Assembly: GCA_017519685.1 (NCBI GenBank) | Contig: JAFWRV010000090.1 | Span: 1 to 19,252, forward strand | Reading direction: 5' to 3' | From: Clostridia bacterium | GTDB lineage: Bacteria > Bacillota > Clostridia > Oscillospirales > Acutalibacteraceae | DNA length: 19,252 nucleotides | Shown here: one piece after another, positions 1,605-18,589 of the stretch | Layout: every line of letters starts with the position of its first letter | How positions within the stretch are numbered: the stretch's first letter is position 1 | Made by a program: the position numbers and the translations under genes | The notes under the pieces: model-generated | What the model was told of the DNA's origin: nothing | The model's database searches: none | What the model saw: the letters and a program-made list of their open reading frames with translations, nothing else

Positions 1605-1608
1605 TGTT

Positions 1609-3029: not shown

Positions 3030-3588
3030 TTTTTATCTGCCTCTGGGTTCTCATCATGGTCGGGATGATTGTTTCAAACACAACCATGAATTTCTTAAGC
3101 ATATTGTCGGGCGTTTCATACATACCCGTTCTGAACCATTCCGAAAGAGTTCCGATTATCGCGTACATATAAAACGACGCCGTGAAATCAACAATATCCT
3201 CGGAGATATTCCTTCCCTCGGATATTTCGTGAATGAATTCCGAAAGAATAATCTTGCAGGATTTGAACATATAGTTTTCGAGATACTCATAGCTTCTCGA
3301 CGCGCAGATATTGTTGATGATTTTTTTGTTGTTGTAAGCAGTCGTCAGCAGATTTGAAAATCCCACCAGCCAGCGGAAGCCGTTGCGGTGTTCGGCGACC
3401 ATTTCGGTGAATTCGCGCGTGAACATCTCCTCGAGCAGCTCATAAATGTCGCTGTAATAATAGTAGAAGGTGTTACGGTTGACATTCGCTCTCTCGACTA
3501 TATCGCGCACGGTTATTTTGTCAAAAGGTTTTTCTCCGAGAATCTCAACAAATGTTCTGAAAATCAGATTTTTGGTATTAGTTGACAT
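3010..3588 (-). CDS. TetR/AcrR-family transcriptional regulator
   Basis: The 192-residue protein has a typical TetR N-terminal helix-turn-helix: ITVRDIVERANVNRNTFYYYY at residues 25-45, after LIFRTFVEILGEKPFDK. The remaining 140 residues form the variable helical ligand-binding and dimerisation domain. The pattern NTFYYYYSDIYELLE resembles clostridial DhaS-like TetR proteins. The start codon overlaps the stop of the GPH symporter gene by one base (TAATG), so it is probably translated from the same message. It may control that symporter or the whole run, possibly through the palindromic hairpin at 5022-5054, but the ligand is unknown. The best ribosome binding site, GAGG, is rather far (about 13 bases), consistent with translational coupling. 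Confidence 0.88.
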   Translation of the reverse strand: MSTNTKNLIFRTFVEILGEKPFDKITVRDIVERANVNRNTFYYYYSDIYELLEEMFTREFTEMVAEHRNGFRWLVGFSNLLTTAYNNKKIINNICASRSYEYLENYMFKSCKIILSEFIHEISEGRNISEDIVDFTASFYMYAIIGTLSEWFRTGMYETPDNMLKKFMVVFETIIPTMMRTQRQIKNDSSDK

Positions 3589-5003: not shown

Positions 5004-5021
5004 AACTTCAGCCCTGCCTTC

Positions 5022-5054
5022 TCCGCGGACACGGTTACCCGCCGTATCCGCGGA
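5022..5054. promoter_or_regulatory. GC-rich inverted repeat between phosphatase-like segment and symporter
   Basis: Two copies of the self-palindrome TCCGCGGA (5022-5029 and 5047-5054) form the outer stem, and ACGG/CCGT (5031-5034/5042-5045) forms the inner stem after one mismatch, with a 7-base loop. No T-run follows on either strand, so it is not a standard intrinsic terminator. It lies 19 bases upstream of the symporter ATG. That fits an RNA hairpin affecting symporter expression (attenuation, processing, 3' end protection) or a DNA operator for the co-encoded TetR protein. Confidence 0.55.
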
Positions 5055-5062
5055 ATTGATGT

Positions 5063-6721
5063 TTAAAAGATTTTACTGATGAATATAATCACAGGCGATA
5101 AAATTTTAAGAATGAAATTGGGCAGCTGCCACAGGAAGCCGGTATTCATTTCCGAAAGCAAAGTTCCGATAATACCGGTGCTGTCCTTTACGGCGGGTCT
5201 GCTTTCTGCTTTTGAAATTCCGAAGGAGTCGGCGAGCTTTGCTTCGCCGTCCTTGACCTGATACGCGCTGTAATACAGCTTGTCTCCGTCAACGGTGACC
5301 GCCGCAAACATCCGCGTGTTATCGCTTATGACACATTCGGGTTCCGGGAACGATTTGGCGGTGTCCTTGGGAGCCGCCTGCTCAAATTCCGAGACTCCGG
5401 CGCGCCCGAGAGCGGCGTAAACCGTTCCCTTCGGGTCTGCCAGCATTTTATATGTCTGACCGTTATATGTTTCTTCCTCTGCCGCTGTGGGAATCACGCA
5501 GTTTGCGCTCATGGGCAGCGTTCTCGAATAAACGCCGTCCTGCCCCGAAAGGACAAGGTCAACTCCGAGATACGGAAGCAGCGCCCCGAGACGGTTCCTC
5601 AGCGACTTGACATCGTCGTCATCAAAGTTTTCACCGACCGAGTAAACCGACTTGTGAAGGACAAGTATCTTCCACTTTGCGTCTGAGGAGCTTATATCCT
5701 TCTTCATCCAGTCAAGCTGGGCATCTCCGAGCTTGTCATCGGTGATATCGTTTGTGTTCAGCACGGTGAAATGCGCGTTATTGTAATCGTATGAATAATA
5801 TGTTCCTGTTTCCTCATCCTGCTCGGGCACTCCGGGCAGGGTGAAATTCGTTTTTATCGCCGCTTCTTTGTTTTCGCCTGTTCCCGCCGCGGGCATAAAC
5901 GGAAGATTGAGGAAGGTGTCGGTTGAATTGAAGAAATTCTTCCACTGCTTGACGTTCAGTCCGTAATCAACCTGGCTTCCGGTTGAAACGGTGAATCCCG
6001 CCGAGGGATAAAGCTTCGTCGCGGCATCCATAATTCCGGCAAAATTTTCAAAGTGGCTCGCTCTCTGCGCCGAGGGGTCGGCAATCCCGATGAAGGTGAA
6101 CGCCTCATCTTTGCCGCCCGGAAGCGTAAAGCTGCCCGTATCGCTCCACCAGTTTCTCTCCTCGCTGCCGACACGGTAGTAATAGGTCTTTCCGGGTTTC
6201 AGCCCGCTTAGAGTTACGGTGTGTTTGACATAGTCTTTATAGAAAGGAAGGAAAGCGAAAACTCCGAGGTCCGCTCCGGGATAAGCTCTCGGGCAGATTT
6301 CGGCGGCAGAAGCAATGCCGCTTCCTTTTGTCGCCTTTCCGGTAAACCGGGGTTCCTTATCCGCCTCGATAAGCTCAATATCGCTGTCCTCAATGCTGTA
6401 TTTGGTGTACCAGGTGACGGTTCTTTCCGTCAGGGAATCCTCTCCGAGATTCAAAACTGTATTCGCGGGCAGTCTGCAGTTTGCTTTTGTCGCTTCAACC
6501 TCTTCCGCTCCGGAATATGTTATCGTGATGTTATTATCAAACTGCGGCTCGGGGTTATTATCAAACACAAGCGTGCTTATCATCCACGAAATCGTGGCGC
6601 CCCATGCCTCATACTGACTCTTTGTGAAATACTTCTTAAGAAGAAGGGTGTCGAGTATGTTTTCAATTGAACTGTATTTTTCCGGAACAAGATCAATCGA
6701 AAGAACAGACTCAACGATGTT
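5063..6721 (-). CDS. purple-acid-phosphatase-like segment with degraded metal site (probably the 3' part of a split gene)
   Basis: The frame is open up to 6859, but 6722-6859 overlaps the upstream gene and reads as an unnatural Ser/Arg-rich peptide. There is no signal peptide and no fitting start. The convincing protein (552 residues) begins at about 6721 with NIVESVLSIDL. A fibronectin-like purple-acid-phosphatase N-domain follows (RTVTWYTKYS ... LKPGKTYYYRVGS), then a calcineurin-fold domain. The fold's landmarks are recognisable but the ligands are changed. GD becomes GS (STGSQVDYG), GNH[DE] becomes GTGE, and GHDH becomes GQDG (SGQDGVYSRT). Only the first Asp (IADPSAQ) and the His of LHKSVYS remain. 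It is probably not a metal phosphatase; a binding role is possible. The C-terminus is hydrophobic (FILKILSPVIIFISKIF), perhaps a membrane anchor. Joined to the upstream gene it would give 1,162 residues. Confidence 0.75.
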   Translation of the reverse strand, partial: NIVESVLSIDLVPEKYSSIENILDTLLLKKYFTKSQYEAWGATISWMISTLVFDNNPEPQFDNNITITYSGAEEVEATKANCRLPANTVLNLGEDSLTERTVTWYTKYSIEDSDIELIEADKEPRFTGKATKGSGIASAAEICPRAYPGADLGVFAFLPFYKDYVKHTVTLSGLKPGKTYYYRVGSEERNWWSDTGSFTLPGGKDEAFTFIGIADPSAQRASHFENFAGIMDAATKLYPSAGFTVSTGSQVDYGLNVKQWKNFFNSTDTFLNLPFMPAAGTGENKEAAIKTNFTLPGVPEQDEETGTYYSYDYNNAHFTVLNTNDITDDKLGDAQLDWMKKDISSSDAKWKILVLHKSVYSVGENFDDDDVKSLRNRLGALLPYLGVDLVLSGQDGVYSRTLPMSANCVIPTAAEEETYNGQTYKMLADPKGTVYAALGRAGVSEFEQAAPKDTAKSFPEPECVISDNTRMFAAVTVDGDKLYYSAYQVKDGEAKLADSFGISKAESRPAVKDSTGIIGTLLSEMNTGFLWQLPNFILKILSPVIIFISKIF

Positions 6722-6743
6722 AAAGCAGACTGTTGTCTCCGCC
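6720..6743 (-). other. frame-change junction CTG CTT TAA C
   Basis: The upstream phosphoesterase frame stops at TAA 6722-6720, exactly where the next frame (+1 relative) takes over with protein-like sequence. Skipping one T in CTTTAAC joins the frames smoothly as ...GGDNSLL-NIVESVLS.... CTT followed by a stop and C resembles the prfB +1 shift site (CTT TGA C). However, the Shine-Dalgarno-like GGAG (6740-6737) is 11 bases upstream of CTT, not the 3 bases used in prfB. A true mutation, a base-call or assembly error, and programmed shifting all remain open. Confidence 0.65.
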
Positions 6744-8552
6744 GAAAATCTGAACGGTGATGAGCTGAAGAAGCTTTCCGAGCATGCTGAATACCGTTCC
6801 GTCGGGGAACAGCGCGCCGGGATTGAGATTGATATCCTTGAGAATGATATTTTCTGCAAGGTCCTTTACCACGACCTCAATAATCAGATTAAACAGCTTC
6901 TCGGTTGTTTCGCCGCTGTCAAATCTCCTGAGCGCGTCCTCCGCGAACTCATAACCTTTCTGACCGATTATGTTCTCGTCTCCGCCGTAATAGAGGAGCA
7001 GGGCGGTGGTTGCGTATTCGCCGATGGTGCAGGGTTTTCCCGTATTCTTAACATCGAGTTTCTCGCAGTTGTAGGTGTTCGGATATGTGCTGACCTCAAA
7101 CGCGAGCAGTTTCCTGACAAGCGTCATGACCTTCGCGAGTGTCTCCTCGGGTTTATTGATATATTTTTCCAGTATCTGGCTGTCGATATCGCGGATGAGC
7201 CCCATCGCGTTGGTTCTGACAGTCAGTATATCCTGACCGGCAACGGATATTCCGTTTGTGCCGATCAATCCGATAAGCAGCTCCTCAACGTCGATATCCT
7301 TTGTTTTGAGGAACGGAATAATTCCGCCCGCTTCGGAAATCTGAGTGAAATAATTTTTGACAAGGTCGGTGAGCAGTCTTTCAACAAAATCACCGATGTC
7401 GTTTCCGAAGGTCTGCTCATAGGATGATGTGTATTTATAAGGTCTTGCGATTGTTTCCCCGAAATCGGTGGTAATCTCTCCGAGTCCGAGTCTTTCATCG
7501 TCAATGTCGTAATTCGTCATATCAAGACGGGTGCTTCTCATATCGGTCGTAAGGTCAACCGTTCTGAAATAATTCGGATAGCCCGTCAGCGTCGGGGTAA
7601 GGATATCGGTTATTCTCTCGCCGTTGTCATTGACATAGGAAGCGGTGTCGCTCGCGTGAAGGTGACCGGTGAAAACATAGTGGATTCCGGCGTCTGCGTA
7701 GAAATCGCAGATTCTCTCCCAGTCCCTGAGAACAAAGGCGAAAAATGTCGCCTCCTCAATATCCATGTGCTGAACAAGATTGTGGTGCTGCATAACGATC
7801 GGCTCTCTGCCGTTCTTCTTTGCCTGCTTTGCCTGGTCGCAAACCCATTCAAGCAGAGCGTCGCCGACGCATCCGTCGGTGAGATGCTCGTTTCCGGGAG
7901 CGCCGTTGTCTTCACTGTACATGCTGGTATCGACAACTATCAGCCTGAAACCCGTTCCGAGGTCCGCGGCATAGGAAAGCATACCGCCCTTTGCTTCGGG
8001 ATATCCCTTCGGAGTGAAGAAAGCGTCTGCCTTGTCAAAACCGAGATTCGCGTAAATCTGACGGAACTGCTCGGGAGAGGTCTTTGTTCCCTGCTCCTTT
8101 TTTCCGTTGACAAAAGTCGTCACGTTGGAATTGTTGATATCGTGATTTCCGTTTGTGACAAATACGGGAATTCCGGTTCTCGCCTGCCACGCCTCAAGCT
8201 TCTGAGCAAGCTCGATATGGCACTCTATCTCGCCGTCTTTGGTAAGGTCGCCGGGAATAAGAAGGAAATTCGCTTTTTCCTCCTCCGCCTGTTTAAGCAC
8301 GGTTTCAACTCCCTGAAGGGCGTTGCCGAGCAAGGCGTTGTTTTCGGCGTATTCCTTATTCTTCAGATAGGTAAACTCTTTATACGCGTCACAGAAGTTT
8401 CCCTTTACGGCGTCGGCAAAATAATGAACATCGGAAAATACTCCGATATGTATCGTGCTTTCTTCGGCGCTTACCGCGAGAGGCAGAAACGCCGCGAGCA
8501 GCGCGAAGCACAAAACTGTTGCCGTAAGCTTCAGCAGAATGCTTTTCTTCAT
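6720..8552 (-). CDS. secreted calcineurin-like metallophosphoesterase (N-terminal part of a split gene)
   Basis: The 610-residue frame begins with a clear signal peptide: MKK, a hydrophobic core at residues 5-26 and a likely cut after AVSA-29. The AAGGA ribosome binding site is well placed. The calcineurin-type dinuclear metal site is complete: D41 and H43 in FSDVH, D102 in PGDLTKDG, N136-H137-D138 in NGNHD, H256/H257 in MQHHN, and GHLH at 296-299. It should be an active extracytoplasmic phosphoesterase; the substrate (phosphodiester, nucleotide or other) is not evident. Residues from about 350 to 610 are helical and unrecognised. The frame ends abruptly at the junction with the purple-acid-phosphatase-like segment, so this is probably the front part of a larger protein. 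It follows the GH3 gene by 17 bases, in the same transcript. Confidence 0.88.
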   Translation of the reverse strand: MKKSILLKLTATVLCFALLAAFLPLAVSAEESTIHIGVFSDVHYFADAVKGNFCDAYKEFTYLKNKEYAENNALLGNALQGVETVLKQAEEEKANFLLIPGDLTKDGEIECHIELAQKLEAWQARTGIPVFVTNGNHDINNSNVTTFVNGKKEQGTKTSPEQFRQIYANLGFDKADAFFTPKGYPEAKGGMLSYAADLGTGFRLIVVDTSMYSEDNGAPGNEHLTDGCVGDALLEWVCDQAKQAKKNGREPIVMQHHNLVQHMDIEEATFFAFVLRDWERICDFYADAGIHYVFTGHLHASDTASYVNDNGERITDILTPTLTGYPNYFRTVDLTTDMRSTRLDMTNYDIDDERLGLGEITTDFGETIARPYKYTSSYEQTFGNDIGDFVERLLTDLVKNYFTQISEAGGIIPFLKTKDIDVEELLIGLIGTNGISVAGQDILTVRTNAMGLIRDIDSQILEKYINKPEETLAKVMTLVRKLLAFEVSTYPNTYNCEKLDVKNTGKPCTIGEYATTALLLYYGGDENIIGQKGYEFAEDALRRFDSGETTEKLFNLIIEVVVKDLAENIILKDINLNPGALFPDGTVFSMLGKLLQLITVQIFGGDNSLL

Positions 8553-8569
8553 CTCAAAGTCCTTCTTTC

Positions 8570-10990
8570 TCAGATTTGTTTAAGAAGAGGTCCGACTCCC
8601 TTGATTGCCGCCGGAATTCCCTTCAGTATCTGTCTTAATCCGCCCTTTTCTCCGTTGAGGAGTTTGCAGAGTCCTTCCGCCATGCTCTCGCTGAATACTC
8701 CGCCGCTCATACTGATGAAACTGCGTATGGGCACCTGGAACGCGATTGCCTGGGCGAATCCTTCGGGGATAAATGTCTTAAGAAGGTTAAACATCTTCTG
8801 TCCGTTCTTCTTGCGTCTCGCGCTTTCGAAACTGTCCGCGATTGTTACGGGAGCGTCGGGCGAATAATCCGAAGGAGGCAGCTCGCTGCCGTAAACGGCT
8901 TTGAACTGATCGTCGGGAACATTCTGTACATCGCCTGTGAAGTAAGCGGGCGCGGTTTTTGAATAATCGGGGATTTCAACCTCGGCGGCGTTGATTTTAA
9001 CGGTCGCGGTGAGTCTGATGTCCGCGCTCGATGCGCCGACAATGATATCAAAGTCTCCGCTTTCAACCGTCCAGTCATTAACCGCGACATTGTAGAACGC
9101 GAACGCTCTCTTTCCGAGCTCAACCGAGATTTCCTTCTCCTCGCCGGGCTCAAGGAATACTTTTCTGAAGCCCTTGAGTTCCTTTACGGGACGGAAAACG
9201 GTGCTCTCTTTATCAGCGACATAAATCTGCGCGACTTCCGCGCCTGCCGCGGCGCCCGTGTTCTTAACCTTGAACGAAACGGTTACCGTGTCGTTTTCAC
9301 CGGCTTCGGTTTTGTCAAGCTTTATATCGCTGTATTCAAACGTTGTGTAGGAAAGGCCGTGTCCGAACGGATAGAGAACCGCCTTGTTTGCCTTTTCATA
9401 ATATCTGTATCCGATGTAAATGCTCTCTCTGTGCTCAACAGAAGCGGGATTTCCGGGATAGTAGTTTCTCGCCGGCGTATCGTCATAGGTAAGAGGATAG
9501 GTTTCGGGAAGCTTGCCGGAGGGATTGACCTTGCCGGAAAGAATATCCGCGACCGCTCCGCCGCCCGCCTGGCCGCCGAGATAGGAATTGAGAATCGCCT
9601 TTACCTTGCCGTTCCAGGGGATTTCAACGGGTGAACCGCCCGTGAGAACAACAACGGTATTCGGATTTGCCTTTACAACCTCTTCCACAAGCGTGTTGTG
9701 GGAGGCGGGCATATTCATGTGCTGTCTGTCAAAGCCCTCTGACTCGAAATCGTCTGTAAGGCCGACAAATACCACGGCTATGTCACATTTCGCGGCAAGC
9801 TCCGCGGCCGCTTTGATGAGGGGAGGATTCTTTTTCTCTTTTTTGATTGAGCGCTCATAACCCTGAGCGTATTCGATATTGAATCCGAGCGCCGCAAGCT
9901 CGTCGTAAGCGTTATCTATTTTGGTCGGATTAATCTGTGATGAACCCGCGCCCTGATATCTCGGATTCTTTGCCATATCGCCTATCACGGCAATCTTCTT
10001 ATCCTTCGCGAGGGGAAGAATGCCGCCTTCGTTTTTGAGAAGCACCATTGATTTTCCGGCGATCTCTCTCGCAAGGGGCTGATCGTCAATGTCATTATAG
10101 GGATAATCCTTCTTTGAGTTGTCAACCGCCTTTTTGATGAGGTTGAGTATGTTGAGAACTCTCTCGTCAACAACCGCTTCATCAAGCGAGCCGTCTTTGA
10201 CGGCGTTGATTATCTTCTTTGTTCCCGAGCCGAATGACGACGGCATCTCAATATCGTTGCCCGCCTTCATGCCGAGAACTCTGTTGTTGACCGCGCCCCA
10301 GTCGCTGACTATCGCGCCCCGGAAACCCCATTCGTCTCTGAGGATTTCGGTCTGGGTATGTTTGTTTTCCGAACCGTGGAAACCGTTAATCTTGTTATAT
10401 GAATTCATAACCGTCCAGGGCTGCGCCTTTTTGACGGCAATTTCAAATCCGCGCAGATATATTTCACGCAGCGCTCTCTCGTCAACGACCTCGTTGACGG
10501 TCATTCTGCGGGTTTCCTGACTGTTGACCGCGAAATGCTTGAGAGAGGTTCCGACTCCCTGGCTCTGAACGCCGTTGATAAGACCTGCCGCCATCTCTCC
10601 GGCAAGCTCGGGGTCCTCTGAAAAATACTCGAAGTTTCTTCCGCACAGGGGACTTCTCTTCATATTGATGCCGGGGCCGAGCAGAACGCCGACCTCCTCC
10701 TTGAGACATTTCTTTCCGAGAGCGACACCCATTCTGTTGACCAGTTCGGGGTCCCATGACGCCGCTGTTGACGCCGCCGTCGGGAAGCAGATTGAGGGAA
10801 CAGAGCACTCAAGACTCGAGCCCTTCTTGCTGTAATCCTTCTTGCGCAGTCCGTGAGGTCCGTCGCAGACCATTACAGCGGGTATGTCGTATTTCTCCAT
10901 CTCCTGGAGATGCCAGTAGTCTCCGCCGTCACACATAGCGGCCTTTTCCTCAAGAGTCATCTGAGCTAAAATTTCTTTGGGGTCTTTCAT
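8570..10990 (-). CDS. glycoside hydrolase family 3 beta-glucosidase, cytosolic
   Basis: The 806-residue enzyme removes terminal beta-linked sugars, most likely glucose. The first domain carries the GH3 nucleophile D230 in AIVSDWGAVN, plus KHFAVNSQETRR (151-162) and GRNFEYFSEDP (118-127). The second domain carries the probable acid/base E418 in FESEGFDRQH. PFGHGLSYTTFEY (541-553) leads into the fibronectin-like third domain (to about 665). A C-terminal extension of about 130 residues follows, including MSGGVFSESMAEGL. There is no signal peptide, so it should act on imported glycosides, which fits the symporter in the same run. Its ATG overlaps the rmuC stop by one base (TAATG), with AAGGAGG seven bases upstream. 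Xylosidase or another beta-glycosidase activity is possible. Confidence 0.93.
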   Translation of the reverse strand: MKDPKEILAQMTLEEKAAMCDGGDYWHLQEMEKYDIPAVMVCDGPHGLRKKDYSKKGSSLECSVPSICFPTAASTAASWDPELVNRMGVALGKKCLKEEVGVLLGPGINMKRSPLCGRNFEYFSEDPELAGEMAAGLINGVQSQGVGTSLKHFAVNSQETRRMTVNEVVDERALREIYLRGFEIAVKKAQPWTVMNSYNKINGFHGSENKHTQTEILRDEWGFRGAIVSDWGAVNNRVLGMKAGNDIEMPSSFGSGTKKIINAVKDGSLDEAVVDERVLNILNLIKKAVDNSKKDYPYNDIDDQPLAREIAGKSMVLLKNEGGILPLAKDKKIAVIGDMAKNPRYQGAGSSQINPTKIDNAYDELAALGFNIEYAQGYERSIKKEKKNPPLIKAAAELAAKCDIAVVFVGLTDDFESEGFDRQHMNMPASHNTLVEEVVKANPNTVVVLTGGSPVEIPWNGKVKAILNSYLGGQAGGGAVADILSGKVNPSGKLPETYPLTYDDTPARNYYPGNPASVEHRESIYIGYRYYEKANKAVLYPFGHGLSYTTFEYSDIKLDKTEAGENDTVTVSFKVKNTGAAAGAEVAQIYVADKESTVFRPVKELKGFRKVFLEPGEEKEISVELGKRAFAFYNVAVNDWTVESGDFDIIVGASSADIRLTATVKINAAEVEIPDYSKTAPAYFTGDVQNVPDDQFKAVYGSELPPSDYSPDAPVTIADSFESARRKKNGQKMFNLLKTFIPEGFAQAIAFQVPIRSFISMSGGVFSESMAEGLCKLLNGEKGGLRQILKGIPAAIKGVGPLLKQI

Positions 10991-12330
10991 TAATCTTCCT
11001 CCTTAATCTCTGTTTCTGCCGGACCGGTCAGTCCGGGAATATCACCGGCTTCGGCGCCGTCGATTAATTCCGCTTTTCCTAATTTTTTCAATATAATGTT
11101 ATTTCTCTTGTCCGCGTCGTCAAGGGTCTTTCCCGCCTCATCGATTTTCTTTCTCGCCTTGCGGATAAGATTTCCGAATATGTCATACTGCTGTTTTGCC
11201 GCGCCCAGAAGAATTCTGACCTCGTTTGCCTTTTCGTTTATGGCAACCGCGCGGAAGCCGAGCGAAAGGGAATTTAGAAGGGCGGTAACGGTTGAAGGTC
11301 CGGCAATCATAACGCTGTATTCTCTCTGTATTCTCTCGGCGATTCCCGAGCGCGCCGCCGTTATTTCGGCATACAGCCCTTCGGTGGCAAGATACATTAT
11401 AGCGTAGGGTGTGGTAACCGGAACGTTGATATATTTTGAAATTGATTTCGCCTCGCTGAGCACCCTTGCCTCGAGCGTCTTTCTTGCCGCTTCGAGCGCC
11501 GCGGAATCCGCCGCGTCAGCCGCGTCGCAGAGCCGTATATAATCCTCCATCGGAAACTTTGAGTCAATCGGGAGATAGGCGGTAATCCCGTCGCCCGACG
11601 GAATTTTAACGGCAAACTCCACTCTGTCCTGTGAACCGGGCACACAGACGAAATTGTTTTCGTACATACCGGGTATTGTCTGGTCGAGAATCGCGCCGAG
11701 CTGAACCTCCGCCCAGGTGCCCCTCGCTTTGACATTGGTCAGCACCCTGTTGAGCGCGGTGACATTCGTCGTGACTCCTGTTGAGAGCTCCTTCATCTCG
11801 CCGAGGGACTTGTTGACGCTCTCAAGTCTGTCGGAAACCGTTCTGAACGACGCCTCGAGCCGGGTTGAAAGGGTGGCGGTCAGTTTTTCGTCAACCGTCG
11901 TTCTCATTTCCTCGAGTTTTTTCTCGTTGCTCTGACGCATTTTTTCTACCGATTCGGAGAGCATCCTCGTCTGCTTCTCGCTCTGCTCGGCATCGTTGAG
12001 TTTGATTTCGCTCAGCGACTGTATCATCATTTTTTCGAGAGCCGCCGCCCTTTCGGAATTGTCGGTCCGCATCTGCTCCATCCTGGCGGCAACATTGTTC
12101 ACCGACCTTGCGGTTTCCTCTCTCATCGCCGCCTGGCTTGCGGCGTTTTCACGCCTCGAGCGCTCAAATTCATTGTTGACGGTTTCTCCGAATCCCGCAA
12201 CCTTGCGGCTGATTTCGTCAATCTGTCTTTTGCTTTCTCCGGGGTCGGACCTGCTTTGCCGTATAAGAACAATTATAAGCAAAATCAGCGTTACTCCGAT
12301 TAATGCCCATGTGATGTAATCAAGGACCAT
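10990..12330 (-). CDS. rmuC: RmuC-family DNA recombination protein
   Basis: The predicted 446-residue protein has one N-terminal membrane helix (about residues 6-25). A long coiled coil follows (about 30-190, rich in Glu, Lys, Arg and Met). The RmuC nuclease-like core then begins with RGTWAEVQLGAILDQ (203-217) and contains LPIDSKFPMEDYI (253-265). E. coli rmuC affects recombination at inverted repeats, and the domain is related to restriction-type nucleases; the exact reaction is unsettled. An in-frame ATG lies four codons upstream at 12342, but it has no ribosome binding site. The ATG at 12330 has GGGGG five bases ahead, so it is preferred. This is the first gene of the run; its genome-maintenance role is unrelated to the sugar genes it is coupled to. 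Confidence 0.92.
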   Translation of the reverse strand: MVLDYITWALIGVTLILLIIVLIRQSRSDPGESKRQIDEISRKVAGFGETVNNEFERSRRENAASQAAMREETARSVNNVAARMEQMRTDNSERAAALEKMMIQSLSEIKLNDAEQSEKQTRMLSESVEKMRQSNEKKLEEMRTTVDEKLTATLSTRLEASFRTVSDRLESVNKSLGEMKELSTGVTTNVTALNRVLTNVKARGTWAEVQLGAILDQTIPGMYENNFVCVPGSQDRVEFAVKIPSGDGITAYLPIDSKFPMEDYIRLCDAADAADSAALEAARKTLEARVLSEAKSISKYINVPVTTPYAIMYLATEGLYAEITAARSGIAERIQREYSVMIAGPSTVTALLNSLSLGFRAVAINEKANEVRILLGAAKQQYDIFGNLIRKARKKIDEAGKTLDDADKRNNIILKKLGKAELIDGAEAGDIPGLTGPAETEIKEED

Positions 12331-12359
12331 ATATACCCCCATTATAAAATATATATTTT

Positions 12360-12474: not shown

Positions 12475-13170
12475 ATGATAGGCATTATAGGCGCGATGAA
12501 AATCGAAATAGAAAAAATCGACTCTCTGATTCAAAACAAATCGGAAAAACAGATTGCCGGCACTCTTTTCGTTTCCGGAACTCTCAACGGAAAGGAAATC
12601 GTCACCGCGGTCTGCGGTATCGGCAAGGTTGCCGCGGCGATGTGCGCCCAGACAATGATAATGGCATACAGCCCCGACTGTATAATCAACACCGGTGTCG
12701 CCGGCTCGCTCTCGGATAAGGCGGGCATTCTCGATACCGTAATCGCGGATTCGCTCGTCGAGCACGATATGGACACAACCGCTCTCGGAGACCCTCCCGG
12801 ATTTATATCGGGTATCGACACGGTATATTTTCCGGCGGATAAATACGTAAGCTCCCTTCTTTTTGAATGCGCCTCGGGTATCGGAGGTTTCAAAGCTATC
12901 ACCGGCAGGATAGCAAGCGGGGACCAGTTTGTCGCCTCCGCGGAAAAGAAGGATAAAATTGTCGCTCAGTTTGATGCCTGCGCCTGTGAAATGGAAGGCG
13001 CGGCGATCGCTCACACATGCTTCTGCAACAAAGTTCCTTTCGGTGTTATCAGGGCAATCAGCGACTGCGCGGACGGTTCTTCTCACATGGATTACGCTCA
13101 GTTTCTGCCTCAGGCGGCGGCAGCGGCGGCGGAAATCATCAGACTGTTCGTTGAAAAATACGAAAAATAA
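12475..13170 (+). CDS. mtnN: 5'-methylthioadenosine/S-adenosylhomocysteine nucleosidase
   Basis: This 231-residue protein hydrolyses the adenine N-glycosidic bond of methylthioadenosine and S-adenosylhomocysteine, relieving product inhibition of methyltransferases and polyamine synthesis. It starts MIGIIGAMKIEIE, with E11 equivalent to catalytic E12 of the E. coli enzyme. It has INTGVAGSLS (71-80) in the nucleoside-phosphorylase fold, CEMEGAAIAH with E172 and E174 at the ribose site, and AISDCAD with D197, the general acid. Length matches the family. AGGGGGA lies seven bases before the ATG. The gene has its own promoter and terminator and no luxS neighbour, so it is best seen as a monocistronic housekeeping gene. 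Confidence 0.95.
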   Translation: MIGIIGAMKIEIEKIDSLIQNKSEKQIAGTLFVSGTLNGKEIVTAVCGIGKVAAAMCAQTMIMAYSPDCIINTGVAGSLSDKAGILDTVIADSLVEHDMDTTALGDPPGFISGIDTVYFPADKYVSSLLFECASGIGGFKAITGRIASGDQFVASAEKKDKIVAQFDACACEMEGAAIAHTCFCNKVPFGVIRAISDCADGSSHMDYAQFLPQAAAAAAEIIRLFVEKYEK

Positions 13171-13295: not shown

Positions 13296-13324
13296 TTGAC
13301 ATTGACTAATATATTTGATAAAAT
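13296..13324 (+). promoter_or_regulatory. near-consensus promoter of the SCP2-aminotransferase-transketolase operon
   Basis: A perfect TTGACA (13296-13301), a 17-base spacer and TAAAAT (13319-13324, 5 of 6) with an extended -10 TGA at 13316-13318 make this the strongest promoter in the window. The surrounding DNA is AT-rich, as for an UP element. Transcription would begin near 13,331, giving a leader of about 48 bases that ends in AGGAGG. No operator palindrome is obvious. Confidence 0.8.
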
Positions 13325-13378: not shown

Positions 13379-14137
13379 ATGACAGACCAGAAAACCCTCG
13401 CATATATTAATCTTTATGCTGTACTGGGCGCTCTTGAAAACCTCTGTGATCTTGTTCCCGAAGCAAGTGAGGCGCTTACCAATAAGAAGCCCCTTTCCAT
13501 CGGCTTCGATGTAAAAGGCGGCCCCAAAGCAACTCTCACTTTCTATAACGGCAAGTGCAGAATGGACCAGGGCTGCGGCAAATGCGATGTTAAACTTCCC
13601 TTCGCGACATGCGAGAAGTTTAACGGCCTTATCGACGGAACGGTTACTCCGATTCCCTCAAAGGGCTTCACACATATCGGATTTCTTCTCAAGGATTTCA
13701 CCACGCTTACCGATATTCTCAATAAATATATGAGACCGACGGAAGAAGACCTGAAGGATCCCGCATTTATGAGAATCAACACAGAGCTTACTCTCTATGT
13801 TGTCGGCGTCGCGATAGCGCAGGTCGGAAATCAGGATGAAATCGGTAAATTCTCCGCTTCTCACATTGTTGACGGCAGTATAATGATTTCAATCAAAGAC
13901 GGTCCCGCGGTCGAGATTGCCTGCAAGGACCATCATCTGCTCTGCTATAAGAGAAAGCCCGAGAAATACCGCTGCCAGATGGAGTTTGCCGATTTTGAAA
14001 CAGCGAACGCTCTTTTCGGCGGCAGAGTAAACGCCATGAACTGCATCGGCAACGGCAGTGTCGGTATGCACGGTCTCAACGGTATGCTTGACAACGTAAA
14101 CAGAATTCTTGACAGAGTTTCTCTGTATCTTGCATAA
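13379..14137 (+). CDS. SCP2-like protein, Cys-rich, first gene of operon (function unknown)
   Basis: The protein has 252 residues, with no signal peptide or membrane helix; AGGAGG stands seven bases ahead of the ATG. Its layout suggests two sterol-carrier-protein-2-like halves: CDVKLPFATCEKFNGLIDG (69-87) and RCQMEFADFETANALFGG (198-215). In each, a beta strand is followed by the Phe-rich helix that closes the lipid pocket in SCP2 folds. It aligns over most of its length with the last gene of the operon (17412-18224), at low identity. Nine cysteines are present, including C60-x5-C66-x2-C69; the paralogue lacks this cluster. SCP2 domains bind lipids, acyl-CoA or other hydrophobic molecules, so a carrier or binding role for the operon's substrate or product is plausible. 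The family call rests on pattern only. Confidence 0.6.
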   Translation: MTDQKTLAYINLYAVLGALENLCDLVPEASEALTNKKPLSIGFDVKGGPKATLTFYNGKCRMDQGCGKCDVKLPFATCEKFNGLIDGTVTPIPSKGFTHIGFLLKDFTTLTDILNKYMRPTEEDLKDPAFMRINTELTLYVVGVAIAQVGNQDEIGKFSASHIVDGSIMISIKDGPAVEIACKDHHLLCYKRKPEKYRCQMEFADFETANALFGGRVNAMNCIGNGSVGMHGLNGMLDNVNRILDRVSLYLA

Positions 14138-14150
14138 GGAGGATATGAAA

Positions 14151-15425
14151 ATGGCCGCAAAGAAAACAAAATATCCCTGCTTCAAAACAGATAAATCCAA
14201 TGCTCTTTTCGAGAGAGCGATGAATGTTATCCCCGCCGGTATTTACGGTCACCTCGGCCCCGGCGAAGGTCAGTTCATTCCCGTAAACCGCTGGCCCAAG
14301 TTCTCCGAAAGAGCGCAGGGCTCACATATCTGGGACGTTGACGGTAACGAATATATCGACTATATGTGCGCTTACGGTCCCAACGTTCTCGGCTACAACG
14401 ACCCCGATGTTGACGCCGCCGCTCTCGCTCAGCTCAAACTCGGCAACTGCACAACCATACCCGGCAAGGTAATGGTTGAATGCGCCGAACTTCTTGTTGA
14501 CACCGTCGCTTCAGCCGACTGGGCGTTCTTCGCGAAAAACGGTAACGACGCGACCCAGGGAGCGATTCTCACCGCCCGCGCCCATACCCACAAGAAAAAG
14601 CTTATTTTCTTCAACGGTTTCTATCACGGCGTTTCCCCGATGGTTCAGAAGATTGACTATCCCGGCGTAACTCCCGAGGATGTCAAAAACAATATTTATA
14701 TCGACTGGGACGATATCGCGGGTCTGAGAAAGATTCTCGAAGAGGATGACGACGTTGCCGCCGTTATCGCTCAGCCCTATGACCACGGTAATTTCTACGA
14801 TAACAAATTCCCGAAGGAAAACACCTGGAAGCAGGTAAGAAAACTCTGCACCGACAATAATGTCGTTCTTATCATCGACGATGTCCGCGCAGGTTTCCGT
14901 CTTGACCTTGCCGGCTCCGACCATTTCTTCGGATTTGAAGCTGACCTTATCTGCTTCTGCAAAGCCCTCGCAAACGGCTACAATATGTCCGCTTTCTGCG
15001 GTAAAGAATTCCTCAAGGATGCCGCTTCGTCACTTTCATACACCGGCTCATACTGGATGAGCTCGGTTCCGTTTGCCGCATGTATCGCCTGCATCAACAA
15101 GATGAAGAAGCTCGATACTCCCAAGCTTTTCCGCGAACTCGGCACTGAGCTTACCGAAGGCCTCAAGGAAGCCGCGGCAAACAACGGTTTCGACCTCGTT
15201 GTTTCCGGCGCTCCCGCTCTGTTCTATATGAGAATAGCAAACGATGATTCGCTCTTCCTTCATCAGGAATGGATTGCGGAATGCGTCAACAGAGGCGCCT
15301 TCTTTGCTTCGCATCACAACCATTTCATCAACGCTTCGCTCACTAAGGAAGATATCAAGACAACCCTTGAAATCGCAGAGGAAGCATTCCACGCGGTCAA
15401 GAAGAATCATCCGGAACTCGGTTAA
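14151..15425 (+). CDS. class III PLP aminotransferase, glutamate-1-semialdehyde-aminomutase-like (not HemL)
   Basis: The 424-residue PLP enzyme belongs to the glutamate-1-semialdehyde aminomutase/class III fold. It has the Schiff-base lysine K271 in ICFCKALANGY, pyridine-nitrogen aspartate D243 in LIIDDVRAGFR, YHG at 158-160 and WDVDGNEYIDYMCAYG (61-76). The cofactor-phosphate loop reads KNGNDATQGA (129-138), unlike the SGTEAT of HemL, and no other haem gene is nearby. It is therefore more likely an aminotransferase of a sugar or other ketone. An upstream in-frame start at 14109 would lie inside the previous gene, and ATG 14145 is only two bases from GGAGG. ATG 14151, eight bases away, is chosen. 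It lies between the SCP2-like gene and the split transketolase, which suggests it acts on a ketol made by that enzyme. Confidence 0.85.
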   Translation: MAAKKTKYPCFKTDKSNALFERAMNVIPAGIYGHLGPGEGQFIPVNRWPKFSERAQGSHIWDVDGNEYIDYMCAYGPNVLGYNDPDVDAAALAQLKLGNCTTIPGKVMVECAELLVDTVASADWAFFAKNGNDATQGAILTARAHTHKKKLIFFNGFYHGVSPMVQKIDYPGVTPEDVKNNIYIDWDDIAGLRKILEEDDDVAAVIAQPYDHGNFYDNKFPKENTWKQVRKLCTDNNVVLIIDDVRAGFRLDLAGSDHFFGFEADLICFCKALANGYNMSAFCGKEFLKDAASSLSYTGSYWMSSVPFAACIACINKMKKLDTPKLFRELGTELTEGLKEAAANNGFDLVVSGAPALFYMRIANDDSLFLHQEWIAECVNRGAFFASHHNHFINASLTKEDIKTTLEIAEEAFHAVKKNHPELG

Positions 15426-15480
15426 CGGTAATTCTGCGGTTACACCCGCTTCAATATGAAATATAAAGGAGGAATTTCCC

Positions 15481-16359
15481 ATGGCATTAACAAAACAAGA
15501 ATGGCTTGATCTTGAAAAGAAAGCCCATGAGCTCCGCCACCTTACTCTCCAGACCACAGTCTGGGCGGGCAGCGGCCATCTCGGCGGCGGTCTTTCAGTT
15601 CTTGACCTTCTGACAGTTCTTTATCACAAATATCTCAACATCAAGGTTGACGAGCCCAAGTGGGAAGACAGAGACAGATTCATCCTTTCAAAAGGACACG
15701 CTGCCATCGCTTACGCTCCCGTACTCTGCGACAAGGGATTCAACGATCCCGAAATGCTCAAGACATTCAACCTTTCCGGTTCAAAAATGGGAATGCACCT
15801 TGACTCAAATAAAGTTGTAGGCGTTGACGCTTCAACCGGCTCACTCGGTCACGGCTGTTCGATAGCCGCAGGCACCGCTCTCGCGGCAAGAATCCTCGGC
15901 AAGGATTACCTCACCTATGTGGTAACAGGCGACGGCGAGCTTGACGAGGGCTCAAACTGGGAAGCTTTTATGACCATGAATCAGTACAAGCTTTCAAACT
16001 GCATTGTCTTTGTTGACAGAAACCACAATATGATAGACGGTCCCACAGAGGAAGTTATGGCTCTTGAGCCGCTCGCCGATAAGCTCACATCATTCGGCTT
16101 CAACACCATCTGCGTTGACGGCAACAATATCAAAGAGCTCTGCGACGCGATTGATGTCGCAATAGAGCGCTCCAAAGAGGCGCAGGCACCCACCTGCATC
16201 CTTATGGATACACTCAAGGGCGCCGGCATTCTCAGTGTTCAGGGCGATTATCACTGCCACTATATGGCAATTGACGATCCCACCTTCGAAAAATACAAGG
16301 CGGAACTTGATCAGTATTACGCAGACCGTGTAGCTCGCGTAGAAAAGGAGGCTGAATAA
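15481..16359 (+). CDS. transketolase, N-terminal (TPP diphosphate-binding) subunit
   Basis: The 292-residue protein corresponds to the first half of transketolase. It shows SGHLGGGLS with H33, SKGHA with H73, GSLGHG (120-125), and the TPP/Mg motif GDGELDEGSNWEA (150-162) ending at N181 in VDRNHN. With the next gene it forms a split transketolase that transfers two-carbon ketol groups between a ketose and an aldehyde acceptor, using thiamine diphosphate. GGAGG lies eight bases before the ATG, and the 55-base gap after the aminotransferase has no terminator. Split transketolases are common in Firmicutes and Archaea. The presence of the aminotransferase and SCP2-like genes suggests a specialised acceptor, though pentose-phosphate function cannot be excluded. 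Confidence 0.93.
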   Translation: MALTKQEWLDLEKKAHELRHLTLQTTVWAGSGHLGGGLSVLDLLTVLYHKYLNIKVDEPKWEDRDRFILSKGHAAIAYAPVLCDKGFNDPEMLKTFNLSGSKMGMHLDSNKVVGVDASTGSLGHGCSIAAGTALAARILGKDYLTYVVTGDGELDEGSNWEAFMTMNQYKLSNCIVFVDRNHNMIDGPTEEVMALEPLADKLTSFGFNTICVDGNNIKELCDAIDVAIERSKEAQAPTCILMDTLKGAGILSVQGDYHCHYMAIDDPTFEKYKAELDQYYADRVARVEKEAE

Positions 16360-16361
16360 TT

Positions 16362-17369
16362 ATGGCAGGCGGATTTGTTTATAACGCAATAGACCAGACC
16401 GAAGTTGCCACCGCCGAAATTTACGGCAAGGCAATAGCAGATATTATGTTGAATGATCCCAAGGTCGTCGCCATCACAGCCGACCTTGCGAAATCGACCA
16501 AGCTCGGCGATGTACTTAAGGTCTGCCCCGAAAGAGTTATCAATGTCGGTATAGCGGAGCAGGATATGTTCGGCGTAGCCGCAGGTATGGCGAGAGCCGG
16601 CGTTATTCCCTTCGTTTCGGGTTTCTCGGCATTCTGCTCAATGAGAGCCTGCGACCAGCTTCACACCGACATCTGCTATCAGAATGTCAATGCCAAGATA
16701 GTCGCCACCCATTCGGGCACATCCTTCGGTCAGGCGGGTTCAACGCATCACGCCATCACCGACCTCGCTATCACAAGAGCGATGCCCAACCTTACGGTTA
16801 TTGTTCCCGCCGACGGATTTGAGACCGCGAACGCGGTCAACGCGGCGTATAACACCGAAGGTCCCTTCTATATCAGAATCAACCGCGGTTTCGACCTCGT
16901 TCTCTATGATAACATGGATTACGGTTTTGAGGTCGGCAAAGCGGTTACAATCAATGAGGGCACGGATATCACCGTCATCGCCTGCGGCTCATGCGTAGCT
17001 CAGGCAAAGAAAGCCGCCGAATTCTTAAAGAACGCGGACGGTCTGAGCGTGAGAGTGCTCAATATGCACACAATCAAACCCATCGACAAAGACGCCATTC
17101 TCAAGGCAGTGCTTGAAACCAGAAGAATCATCACGGTTGAGGATCACCTTGTTACCGGCGGTCTCGGCTCGGCAGTTGCGGAGGTTGTTGTTGACAGCGG
17201 CAAGGCCTGCGCTTTCAAGATGCTCGGTCACAAGGGCTTCGCAATGATAGGTCTTCAGGAAGATATCATGGCAGACGCCGGCATTGATGCAAACGGCATC
17301 ATCGCCTCGGTTCGTGAAGTCATGAATAAAGACTTTGAAGAAGATAACGACTGGGATGACGAATATTAA
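16362..17369 (+). CDS. transketolase, C-terminal (pyrimidine-binding plus C-terminal domain) subunit
   Basis: The 335-residue partner of the preceding gene carries the pyrimidine-binding domain with catalytic glutamate E66 in NVGIAEQDMFGVAAG, which activates the TPP aminopyrimidine. The acceptor-site stretch THSGTSFGQAGSTHH (116-130) and MPNLTVIVPADGFE follow. The C-terminal domain (about 195-320) contains TVEDHLVTGGLGSAV. The ATG is two bases after the previous stop, with AAAGGAGG inside that gene's last codons, so the two subunits are made in coupled amounts. The final residues are unusually acidic (FEEDNDWDDEY). Sulfo-sugar and aminosugar pathways also use split transketolases of this type, but no other genes of those pathways are here. 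Confidence 0.93.
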   Translation: MAGGFVYNAIDQTEVATAEIYGKAIADIMLNDPKVVAITADLAKSTKLGDVLKVCPERVINVGIAEQDMFGVAAGMARAGVIPFVSGFSAFCSMRACDQLHTDICYQNVNAKIVATHSGTSFGQAGSTHHAITDLAITRAMPNLTVIVPADGFETANAVNAAYNTEGPFYIRINRGFDLVLYDNMDYGFEVGKAVTINEGTDITVIACGSCVAQAKKAAEFLKNADGLSVRVLNMHTIKPIDKDAILKAVLETRRIITVEDHLVTGGLGSAVAEVVVDSGKACAFKMLGHKGFAMIGLQEDIMADAGIDANGIIASVREVMNKDFEEDNDWDDEY

Positions 17370-17411
17370 TATTCCCGTAAATTTTAAGGAAACACGGAAG
17401 GATTGATATAT

Positions 17412-18224
17412 ATGGCTTCAAGAGACGATATGTTTACCAATAAACTGTTTCTCTGCGCCGCTCTTCCTCTTATGAAAACGATAGCCTGCGATGTGCCCGA
17501 TCTCGCGAAAAAGTTTGAGCACGCTCACGCGGTTATCCAGATAAGCGCGGATGATCCCGAAGCTCCCGACGGAAAATTCGCCACTCACTTCATTATTAAT
17601 TCCGGTGAATGGGTGGTTCACGCCGACAAGGTCAGTGATAAAGAGCATACCGACATAGAGCTCGAATTCAAGAGCGTTGAGCAGATGAACGCGTTTTTCA
17701 AGGGCTCGATAGGCCCCAAAACTCTTCCCAAAATGCACGGCATTACAAAGAAACCCGGCCTCTTCCTTTCATTTATGATGGTGCTTCTCAAGATGAGCTC
17801 ACTGCTCACCGCAAAAGAGGCTCCCGAAGATGAGGAAACCCAGAGACTCATGGTCAAATGTTTCTTTTATCTGCTTACAAGCGGCATAAGCACACTCAAT
17901 AAACAGGGTCACGATGAAGTTCACGCATGGACTTCAAAGAGCCCCGACAGAGTTTATGCGCTCGCTGTAAACGATCACCCCGAGGTATCCGCGTTTATCA
18001 GAATAAAAGCGGGTCACTCAAAGGCAGGCAGGGGAGAATACAAGAGAGCGATGCCTTTCTTTACGCTGCGTTTTGATTCATTCAAGAGCGCGCTCGGCAC
18101 ACTGCTCGGCACCGACGATATGCTCGATGCTACAAAGAGCGGCAGGATAATCATGGACGGCGGCCCCGAATTCGGCGCGCAGTTCGGCGGATTCCTTCTG
18201 ACCGTAGGCGGCTATGTTCAGTAA
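17412..18224 (+). CDS. SCP2-like protein, last gene of operon (function unknown)
   Basis: The 270-residue protein has no signal peptide. Two SCP2-like halves are suggested by IELEFKSVEQMNAFFKGSIG (82-101) and MPFFTLRFDSFKSALGTLL (214-232). The latter is followed by SGRIIMDGGPEFGAQFGGFL (243-262), a small-residue-rich stretch like the closing turn of SCP2 domains. A hydrophobic segment (LFLSFMMVLLKMSSLL, 117-132) lies between them. It is a distant paralogue of the first gene of the operon, sharing the order of motifs but not the Cys cluster. A TTG nine bases upstream is too close to AAGGA (17398-17402); ATG 17412 has the right spacing. A hydrophobic-ligand carrier for the transketolase/aminotransferase pathway is inferred only. 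Confidence 0.6.
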   Translation: MASRDDMFTNKLFLCAALPLMKTIACDVPDLAKKFEHAHAVIQISADDPEAPDGKFATHFIINSGEWVVHADKVSDKEHTDIELEFKSVEQMNAFFKGSIGPKTLPKMHGITKKPGLFLSFMMVLLKMSSLLTAKEAPEDEETQRLMVKCFFYLLTSGISTLNKQGHDEVHAWTSKSPDRVYALAVNDHPEVSAFIRIKAGHSKAGRGEYKRAMPFFTLRFDSFKSALGTLLGTDDMLDATKSGRIIMDGGPEFGAQFGGFLLTVGGYVQ

Positions 18225-18234
18225 AAGTTTAAGT

Positions 18235-18272
18235 AAAAACAGTTCCACGGTTTCCCGTGGAACTGTTTTTTT
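18235..18272 (+). terminator. very strong intrinsic terminator of the transketolase operon
   Basis: AACAGTTCCACGG pairs perfectly with CCGTGGAACTGTT across a TTTC tetraloop. The stem can extend to 16 base pairs through A/T pairs, and a run of eight or more T follows. On the opposite strand the flanking A-run becomes a T-run, so it could also stop transcription from the right. Confidence 0.95.
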
Positions 18273-18589
18273 CAATGCATAATTCATAATGCTTAATGCT
18301 TAATCGAGGGTCGCTTCGCTACGTCGTCACAAGCTACGTATCTCTTGCGCCCGTGTCTTGACAAATCTGTTTACACGGGCTCTCAATCACTCCGCTGCTC
18401 CTCCTCTCCCCAAAAAGTCTGTCGGACTTTTCGGGGGCCCCATTATTATGTTTCGCCACACCCGCCCTTCGGGCACCCTCTCCGATCTCGGAGAGGGCCA
18501 AACTCTAAGAAACCATTATTATAAATAGGAGCGCAGCGACCCTCAATTATTCATTATTAATTATTAATTATTCATTTCATTATGCATTG
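18273..18589. repeat. 317-bp non-coding element with inverted ends and internal hairpins (MITE-like)
   Basis: The outer ends CAATGCATAA (18273-18282) and TTATGCATTG (18580-18589) are exact inverted copies. An inner pair, GAGGGTCGCTTCGCT (18306-18320) against 18530-18544, matches at 14 of 15 positions. AT-rich TAAT/ATTCAT repeats fill the space between outer and inner arms. Inside are four hairpins: GCCCGTGT/ACACGGGC (18349-18380), CCCC-AAAAGTC/GACTTTT-GGGG (18408-18436), GCCC-TTC-GGGC (18464-18474) and CCCTCTCCGA/TCGGAGAGGG (18476-18497). No reading frame of interest is present. This has the build of a non-autonomous mobile or dispersed structured repeat. No target-site duplication was clearly identified. 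Confidence 0.65.

What the first reader, a model, noticed from the sequence alone, without database searches (positions are those of the whole stretch)
13379..18224. Candidate undescribed pathway: SCP2-like / aminotransferase / split transketolase / SCP2-like operon
Five plus-strand genes between a near-consensus promoter and a very strong terminator combine a ketol-transferring TPP enzyme, a non-HemL class III aminotransferase and two SCP2-like proteins. Transketolase plus transaminase is a known cascade for making 2-amino-1,3-diols: aldehyde plus ketol unit, then amination of the ketone. With a long-chain aldehyde as acceptor the product would have a sphingoid-base-like head group, and SCP2-like proteins could hold the hydrophobic chain. 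Amino-sugar handling, as the split transketolase does in AHBA biosynthesis, is an alternative. The gene order is seen; the chemistry is hypothesis. The plain alternative is pentose-phosphate transketolase with unrelated neighbours.
Basis: partly seen in the sequence, partly recalled or inferred. Interest (0 to 1): 0.78.

Follow-up and report, generated by a model that had tools for sequence, protein, structure and literature searches.

The report
Transketolase–transaminase operon tied to sphingoid bases
Some gut and rumen Clostridia carry a conserved five-gene unit that pairs an unusual transketolase with a transaminase and two lipid-binding proteins, and comparing genomes links it to making or breaking sphingolipid-like backbones by a route I found no description of.

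Summary
The five genes are real and form a conserved unit: all five in order in 72 of 80 related loci; 7 of the other 8 are cut by a contig end. Both flanking proteins model confidently as SCP2-type folds. The aminotransferase is FumI-like (38.6% identity). The split transketolase has Ala at the acceptor position EcD469 in 91 of 91 rows and no basic residue at EcR358 in 88 of 91. A second split transketolase lies elsewhere in the genome. Unexpected: of 11 aminotransferase-positive genomes among 295 in the window's order, 6 have this transketolase and no detected serine palmitoyltransferase (SPT) or ketosphinganine reductase; the other 5 have both of those and not this transketolase. In 3 of those 5 the SPT-reductase pair adjoins the SCP2-aminotransferase genes. 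Best reading: a node converting fatty aldehyde plus C2 ketol to and from a sphingoid-type 2-amino-1,3-diol, without SPT. Direction is unresolved and no chemistry was tested. Against it: the replacement is one clade on the tree, and the aminotransferase persists where SPT already makes sphinganine.

The parts
13296..13324 (+). promoter-like site TTGACA-17-TAAAAT with TG before the second hexamer
   Evidence: consensus scan, 11 of 12 positions; not tested for conservation
13379..14137 (+). ORF1 (O1): 252-aa SCP2-type protein, always the gene before the aminotransferase where the locus is complete
14145..15425 (+). ORF2 (AT): class III aminotransferase, FumI-like, not HemL
   Evidence: PF00202 133 bits; best PDB chain FumI 6hbs 290.5 bits, next GSAM 162.4 bits; 38.6% identity to FumI, 28.8% to GSAM 3bs8
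15481..16359 (+). ORF3 (TKN): ThDP-binding half of a split transketolase
   Evidence: PF00456 133 bits; best PDB chain 6yak split transketolase N half, 205 bits
16362..17369 (+). ORF4 (TKC): pyrimidine-binding plus C-terminal half of the split transketolase; A18 and A125 stand where E. coli R358 and D469 stand
   Evidence: PF02779/PF02780; best PDB chain 6yaj 249 bits; residue counts
17412..18224 (+). ORF5 (O5): 270-aa SCP2-type protein that travels with the transketolase
18235..18270 (+). intrinsic terminator: 16-pair hairpin and T run
   Evidence: fold -24.2 kcal/mol, z -8.06

Best explanation
The operon encodes a two-step node of long-chain (sphingoid-type) 2-amino-1,3-diol metabolism that does not use serine palmitoyltransferase. 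The split transketolase makes or breaks the C2-C3 bond by moving a two-carbon ketol between a sugar phosphate (or another ketol donor) and a hydrophobic, non-alpha-hydroxylated aldehyde, giving a 1,3-dihydroxy-2-ketone. The FumI-like aminotransferase swaps that C2 ketone for the amine. Each enzyme has its own SCP2-type protein to hold or present the greasy chain: ORF1 for the aminotransferase, ORF5 for the transketolase. In the window's genome, where no SPT, no ketosphinganine reductase, no class 3 aldehyde dehydrogenase and no AOR was found, I think synthesis (aldehyde to amino-diol) somewhat likelier than breakdown. Shown: gene content, order, folds, residue changes, co-occurrence. Inferred: substrates, chain length, presentation role of SCP2. 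Unresolved: direction. The confidence given is for the sphingoid-type node; for synthesis given the node I would say about 0.55.
For: (1) Conserved self-contained unit, also in distant lineages. (2) The aminotransferase is nearer FumI (290.5 bits; 38.6%) than GSAM (162.4 bits; 28.8%); FumI takes the C2 amine off hydrolysed fumonisin B1, a sphinganine-like long chain, with pyruvate as acceptor (PMC2933618, passages). (3) Transketolase: EcD469 position is Ala in 91 of 91 operon-type rows, EcR358 position is not R or K in 88 of 91 (K in L125, L126; R in L143); EcS385, EcH461 and EcR520 positions kept in all rows counted. In 19 other transketolase-family proteins from the same genomes the D469 position is D in 15, N in 3, L in 1, A in none. 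Engineering work names R358, S385, D469 and R520 as the positions that open E. coli transketolase to bulky non-sugar aldehydes (PMC7661550, PMC5073344, passages). (4) Tracking with sphinganine-making genes: of 11 AT+ genomes in 295 of the order, 6 have the operon-type TK and no SPT or KDSR match, 5 have SPT (71-100% to the L138 one) plus KDSR-like SDR and no operon-type TK; TK+ genomes are all AT+ (6 of 6, Fisher 5e-10; exclusion within the 11, 0.002; not corrected for kinship). The pair adjoins O1-AT in L138, L139 and, in another order, L140. The AOS scores best with SPT models and with SPT 3a2b (436 bits), the SDR with the 3-ketodihydrosphingosine reductase model. (5) Where the unit is split, it splits as O1-AT and TKN-TKC-O5 (genomes G160 and G444), and O1-AT without TK has no O5 nearby.
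Against: No substrate was tested. The AT is kept in genomes where SPT plus KDSR would already make sphinganine, which simple synthesis does not explain. The five SPT+ AT+ genomes are one clade on the AT tree, so the replacement may be one event, and most SPT+ genomes of the order (36 of 41 at E<=1e-120) lack AT. Exclusion is not strict outside the order: G159 has both, L037 has a KDSR-like SDR near a TK operon, and the 6.4-6.8 Mb genomes G219, G812, G923 have O1-AT, an amino acid permease before it, no operon-type TK and no SPT, which hints at a small imported amine there. The nearest annotated FumI-like genes on plasmids sit in small-molecule catabolic settings. The SPT and KDSR scores lie below the curated cut-offs (536 and 516 against 640; 229 and 218 against 400). 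G000 is 84.8% and G444 60% complete, so absences there are weak. No downstream sphingolipid gene was found to be shared by TK+ and SPT+ genomes (only SPT neighbourhoods were looked at).
Confidence: 0.55

Rival explanations
1. Same node, run as breakdown: the aminotransferase deaminates a sphingoid base from diet, host, protozoa or neighbouring bacteria, and the transketolase cleaves the resulting dihydroxyketone into a fatty aldehyde and a sugar phosphate, a phosphate-free counterpart of sphingosine-1-phosphate lyase.
For: FumI itself deaminates (PMC2933618). In L188 (G444) a class 3 aldehyde dehydrogenase, 411 bits to human fatty aldehyde dehydrogenase 4qgk and 454 bits to 6k0z, follows O5 by 71 bases on the same strand. 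AORs adjoin the TK genes in L124 and L128, the latter beside CoA transferase-, thiolase- and acyl-CoA dehydrogenase-like genes named from their sequence by eye. A ceramidase-like protein (38.3 bits, cut-off 32.1) is near the operon in L122. AT kept beside SPT could be turnover.
Against: The aldehyde dehydrogenase is in 1 of the 6 TK+ genomes of the order, 0 of 5 SPT+ ones and 6 of 20 AT- ones. AOR is in 1 of the 11 AT+ genomes of the order and in 4-10 copies in many of the distant ones, so adjacency there may be chance. The operon carries no transporter or secreted hydrolase. Exclusion of SPT is not expected from a scavenger.
Confidence: 0.27
2. The aminotransferase works on serine and hydroxypyruvate, not on the lipid: it supplies hydroxypyruvate as ketol donor to the transketolase, or serine to SPT, and only the transketolase or SPT handles a lipid.
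For: Serine/hydroxypyruvate is the one small-molecule currency common to a transketolase and to SPT, so it would explain why the same gene sits beside either.
Against: The SCP2-type O1 stays with the aminotransferase even without TK; the nearest solved enzyme, FumI, acts on a long-chain amine; most SPT+ genomes do without it.
Confidence: 0.08
3. Ordinary pentose-phosphate transketolase with unrelated neighbours, or an amino-sugar route like that of AHBA.
For: Split transketolases are common; S385, H461 and R520 equivalents are kept, so a sugar phosphate may still be one substrate.
Against: A second split transketolase with the usual GEDG motif and Arg is in the same genome; this one lost D469 in all rows; it occurs in 6 of 295 genomes of the order, all with the aminotransferase; order conserved. 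No AHBA synthase or kinase gene was seen in the window, but none was searched for by name.
Confidence: 0.1

Closest known systems
FumI, aminopentol aminotransferase of Sphingopyxis (PDB 6hbs)
   Same: Class III aminotransferase subfamily; best PDB match by far (290.5 against 162.4 bits); shared DYMCAYGPN-like block
   Different: 38.6% identity only; FumI groups with plasmid-borne proteobacterial relatives, outside the operon clade; no SCP2 or transketolase partner was seen in the 7 plasmid neighbourhoods viewed
Split transketolase of Carboxydothermus hydrogenoformans (6yaj/6yak)
   Same: Same two-chain architecture, best PDB match for both halves
   Different: It keeps the GEDG motif and the ATRE arginine; the operon enzyme has GQAG and ATAE. 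Characterised with hydroxypyruvate and several aldehydes (PMC7661550, passages)
De novo sphinganine synthesis by SPT plus 3-ketosphinganine reductase
   Same: Would give the same kind of 2-amino-1,3-diol; the SPT/KDSR-like pair adjoins O1-AT in L138, L139, L140
   Different: Starts from acyl-CoA and serine; the window's genome has no match to either gene
SgaAB polyketide synthase plus alpha-oxoamine synthase sphinganine route (PMC12134224, passages)
   Same: A bacterial variant of sphingoid-base synthesis
   Different: Still uses an SPT-like alpha-oxoamine synthase; no transketolase or aminotransferase
Engineered transketolase-transaminase cascades to amino-diols (PMC5813273, listing only)
   Same: The same two reactions in sequence
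   Different: Man-made, short polar products
UbiJ and other SCP2-type proteins that bind lipids for soluble enzymes
   Same: SCP2 fold (UbiJ-SCP2 6h6o, 6h6p among the matches)
   Different: ORF1 and ORF5 are about twice that length, with two SCP2-like halves; the presenting role is recalled for UbiJ and inferred here

Membership tests
FumI-like class III aminotransferases | Class III aminotransferase domain | tested here: met
   PF00202, 133.1 bits against a cut-off of 30.5
FumI-like class III aminotransferases | Nearer FumI than GSAM/HemL | tested here: met
   290.5 against 162.4 bits; 38.6% against 28.8% identity; below every HemL cut-off
FumI-like class III aminotransferases | Inside the clade of FumI itself | tested here: not met
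   FumI groups with plasmid aminotransferases; the operon rows lie apart (quick tree, SH-aLRT only)
FumI-like class III aminotransferases | Deaminates a long-chain C2 amine with pyruvate | not testable with these tools
   needs enzyme assay
Transketolase (split form) | ThDP-binding, pyrimidine and C-terminal domains on two chains | tested here: met
   PF00456 on ORF3; PF02779 and PF02780 on ORF4
Transketolase (split form) | Residues for hydroxylated, phosphorylated acceptors (EcR358, EcD469) | tested here: not met
   D469 position Ala in 91 of 91; R358 position not basic in 88 of 91; other phosphate-site positions S385, H461, R520 kept
Transketolase (split form) | Ketol transfer activity | not testable with these tools
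   needs enzyme assay
SCP2 superfamily | SCP2 fold | tested here: met
SCP2 superfamily | Hydrophobic ligand pocket | not testable with these tools
SPT-dependent sphingolipid synthesis | SPT gene in the genome | tested here: not met
   No match at E<=1e-15 in G000 with the L138 SPT; G000 is 84.8% complete
SPT-dependent sphingolipid synthesis | 3-ketosphinganine reductase in the genome | tested here: not met
   No match at E<=1e-25 in G000
Pentose-phosphate transketolase | Sole or main transketolase of the genome | tested here: not met
   A second split transketolase on C191
AHBA-type split transketolase | AHBA synthase and kanosamine genes nearby | not tested
   None recognised in the window's Pfam hits, but not searched for by model

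The most novel reading that the evidence does not exclude
Some Clostridia and other Bacillota build sphingoid bases without serine palmitoyltransferase: a transketolase adds a two-carbon ketol to a fatty aldehyde, a FumI-like transaminase aminates the dihydroxyketone to a sphinganine-type amino-diol, and two dedicated SCP2-type proteins present the chain. In the window's order one lineage replaced the transketolase module by the classic SPT-reductase pair while keeping the transaminase.
Probability: 0.3. Interest if true: 0.92.

Novelty: new variant of a known kind. Interest (0 to 1): 0.77.

Why it matters
Sphingolipids of gut bacteria affect host immunity and metabolism (PMC10865984, passages), and SPT is the marker used to call a genome a producer. 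A second, SPT-free route, or an anaerobic breakdown route, would mean producers or consumers of sphingoid bases are being missed among common gut and rumen Clostridia. It would also be a natural transketolase for hydrophobic aldehydes, a property so far obtained by engineering, paired with a transaminase for amino-diols.

Tried and rejected
AOR as a fixed partner: dropped, since 1 of 11 AT+ genomes of the order has one and many distant genomes have 4-10. Class 3 aldehyde dehydrogenase as a fixed partner: dropped, in 1 of 6 TK+ genomes of the order but also in 6 of 20 AT- genomes. Ceramidase: one locus only, a weak match, not followed. Extra conserved neighbours of the five genes in the 81 sets: none; the next cluster was in 17 sets, by its position in the gene lists apparently an antisense reading of the operon, then 14. 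Conserved neighbours of the SPT-reductase pair: none beyond the pair, which was seen side by side in 22 of 26 loci. Rfam matches in the window: none. ORF1 by sequence against the PDB: no match at E<=1. Literature: no paper on this combination surfaced (PMC open-licence library only), so I say only that I found none.

Taxon guess: the large genomes G219, G812 and G923 look like Paenibacillus to me; that is recall, no call names them. Gene names given in running text for neighbours seen only are read from the sequence by eye unless a family call is cited. Rows dropped: 75 of 80 loci gave a full-length TKC for the residue counts; L129 (partial) was left out; one of the 20 control stretches (L187) was operon-type and is not among the 19 controls, five of which look like DXS. 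The tree used 25 of 80 near loci, and GSAM and L108 have long branches in it.
Full report

Conservation. Of 80 loci fetched with the AT (best of 570 candidate stretches), 72 show all five genes in order, 7 are cut by a contig end and one (L029) has ORF1-AT only. Neighbours beyond the five are not conserved. The unit is sparse: ORF1 in 7 of 398 genomes of the phylum, AT in 11 of 295 of the order, ORF1 in 12 of 97 of another class and in 4 of 246 of the order of G219. In that other class the full order is seen in L094, L121, L122, L123, L124, L125, L126 and L127, and it is also in L091, L092 and L133. Over 111 loci sorted by profile, 82 read ORF1-AT-TKN-TKC-ORF5.

Two sub-modules. In genomes G160 and G444 the unit is split over contigs exactly as ORF1-AT and TKN-TKC-ORF5, and the ORF1-AT loci without transketolase have no ORF5 (one of those, L045, is cut by a contig end). 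So ORF1 goes with the aminotransferase and ORF5 with the transketolase. One locus breaks the pattern: L128 has TKN-TKC with a reversed, ORF1-like SCP2 gene and no AT in 16 kb.

The aminotransferase. Its best solved relative is FumI (290.5 bits; next, a GSAM, 162.4), at 38.6% identity. FumI moves the C2 amine of hydrolysed fumonisin B1, a long-chain amine, to pyruvate (PMC2933618, passages). The FumI-like group is broad: 31 plasmid records match the AT at E<=1e-40 (9 of them Escherichia and some annotated as HemL or aspartate aminotransferase, so not all are FumI-like), and the seven neighbourhoods I viewed carry peptide-type transporters, kinases, aldolases and amidases. FumI kinship alone therefore does not fix the substrate.

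The transketolase. Aligned to human and E. coli numbering through (the correspondence of human R318, S345, H416, D424, R474 to E. coli R358, S385, H461, D469, R520 is my recall), the acceptor Asp469 is Ala in 91 of 91 operon-type rows and Arg358 is A, S, G or T in 88 of 91; L125 and L126 have Lys and L143 Arg. The Ser, His and second Arg of the phosphate site are kept, so one substrate may still be a sugar phosphate. The other split transketolase of the same genome keeps Arg, Glu and Asp. Of 19 other transketolase-family proteins from these genomes the position is D in 15, N in 3, L in 1. Papers on engineered E. coli transketolase name the same positions for accepting non-sugar aldehydes (PMC5073344 and PMC7661550, passages).

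The link to sphinganine genes. Five AT+ genomes of the order (G428, G433, G504, G518, G662) lack the operon-type transketolase. All five have an alpha-oxoamine synthase 71-100% identical to that of L138 and an SDR 50-100% identical to that of L138. The synthase scores best with serine palmitoyltransferase models and with SPT 3a2b (436 bits), the SDR with the 3-ketodihydrosphingosine reductase model, all below the curated cut-offs. In L138 and L139 (one genus) the order is ORF1-AT-SPT-KDSR, in L140 SPT-KDSR-ORF1-AT. The six TK+ AT+ genomes (G000, G537, G601, G629, G657, G444) have neither. Counts: TK+ 6 of 295, all AT+; SPT at E<=1e-120 in 41 of 295, 5 of them AT+. Fisher values are 5e-10 for AT with TK, 0.01 for AT with SPT and 0.002 for TK-SPT exclusion within AT+; they ignore kinship, and on the AT tree the five SPT-linked rows are one clade (SH-aLRT 99) among transketolase-linked ones, so I count one replacement plus the adjacency in two gene orders. 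Outside the order the picture is looser: G159 has both, distant TK+ genomes have no such SPT, and G219, G812 and G923 have neither.

Mechanism. The compounds that link SPT-KDSR, a C2 transaminase and a ketol-transferring transketolase are sphinganine and its 1,3-dihydroxy-2-ketone. I therefore propose: aldehyde plus C2 ketol to and from dihydroxyketone (TK with ORF5), and dihydroxyketone to and from amino-diol (AT with ORF1). For synthesis speak the exclusion of SPT and KDSR and the lack of aldehyde-oxidising companions in the window's genome. For breakdown speak FumI's reaction, the class 3 aldehyde dehydrogenase after ORF5 in L188, AORs in L124 and L128, and the AT kept beside SPT. The last point is the weakest spot of the synthesis reading, and I have no good answer to it beyond turnover, side-product removal or a change of configuration at C2.

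Novelty. My nine searches of the open-licence library found no description of this combination; subscription papers were not searched. The enzyme families are known; the arrangement and its tie to sphingoid bases are, as far as I could see, new.

Noticed in passing
window 5063-8552 (-): Two overlapping minus-strand ORFs, a metallophosphoesterase (6720-8552) and a purple-acid-phosphatase-like one (5063-6859), may be one gene with a frame break; only described.
   Followed up: no
window 573-12342 (-): Minus-strand set with aldose epimerase, MFS_2 sugar transporter, TetR regulator, GH3 glycosidase and RmuC: an ordinary glycoside-use neighbourhood.
   Followed up: no
window 12475-13170 (+): PNP_UDP_1 nucleosidase/phosphorylase gene just before the operon, same strand.
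   Followed up: no
window 18270-18560: Region after the terminator whose ends carry GAGGGTCGCT / AGCGACCCTC inverted copies, like a small mobile or repeat element.
   Followed up: no
L134:8334-9674, L093:10476-11825, L135:9482-10831: Amino acid permease-like gene directly before ORF1-AT in three large genomes without operon-type transketolase or SPT (family call only for the L134 copy).
   Followed up: partly
L133:14483-15157, L092:6128-6775, L091:4602-5249: Similar TetR-type regulator close after ORF5 in three loci, a possible local regulator.
   Followed up: no
L128:506-12878: Operon-type transketolase next to an AOR and a run of fatty-acid-oxidation-like genes, no aminotransferase in 16 kb.
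   Followed up: partly
L188:2366-3733 (-): Class 3 (fatty) aldehyde dehydrogenase 71 bases after ORF5 in G444.
   Followed up: yes
L179, L180, L181, L168: Other transketolase-like proteins with Asn or Leu at the D469 position, of unknown role.
   Followed up: no
L102-L107 (plasmids): FumI-like aminotransferases in proteobacterial catabolic clusters with peptide-type ABC transporters, dimethylformamidase-like proteins or four-carbon acid kinases.
   Followed up: partly
L148-L167: SPT plus reductase is a free two-gene module in many genomes of this order of Clostridia (41 of 295 with SPT at E<=1e-120), which suggests sphingolipid makers there.
   Followed up: partly
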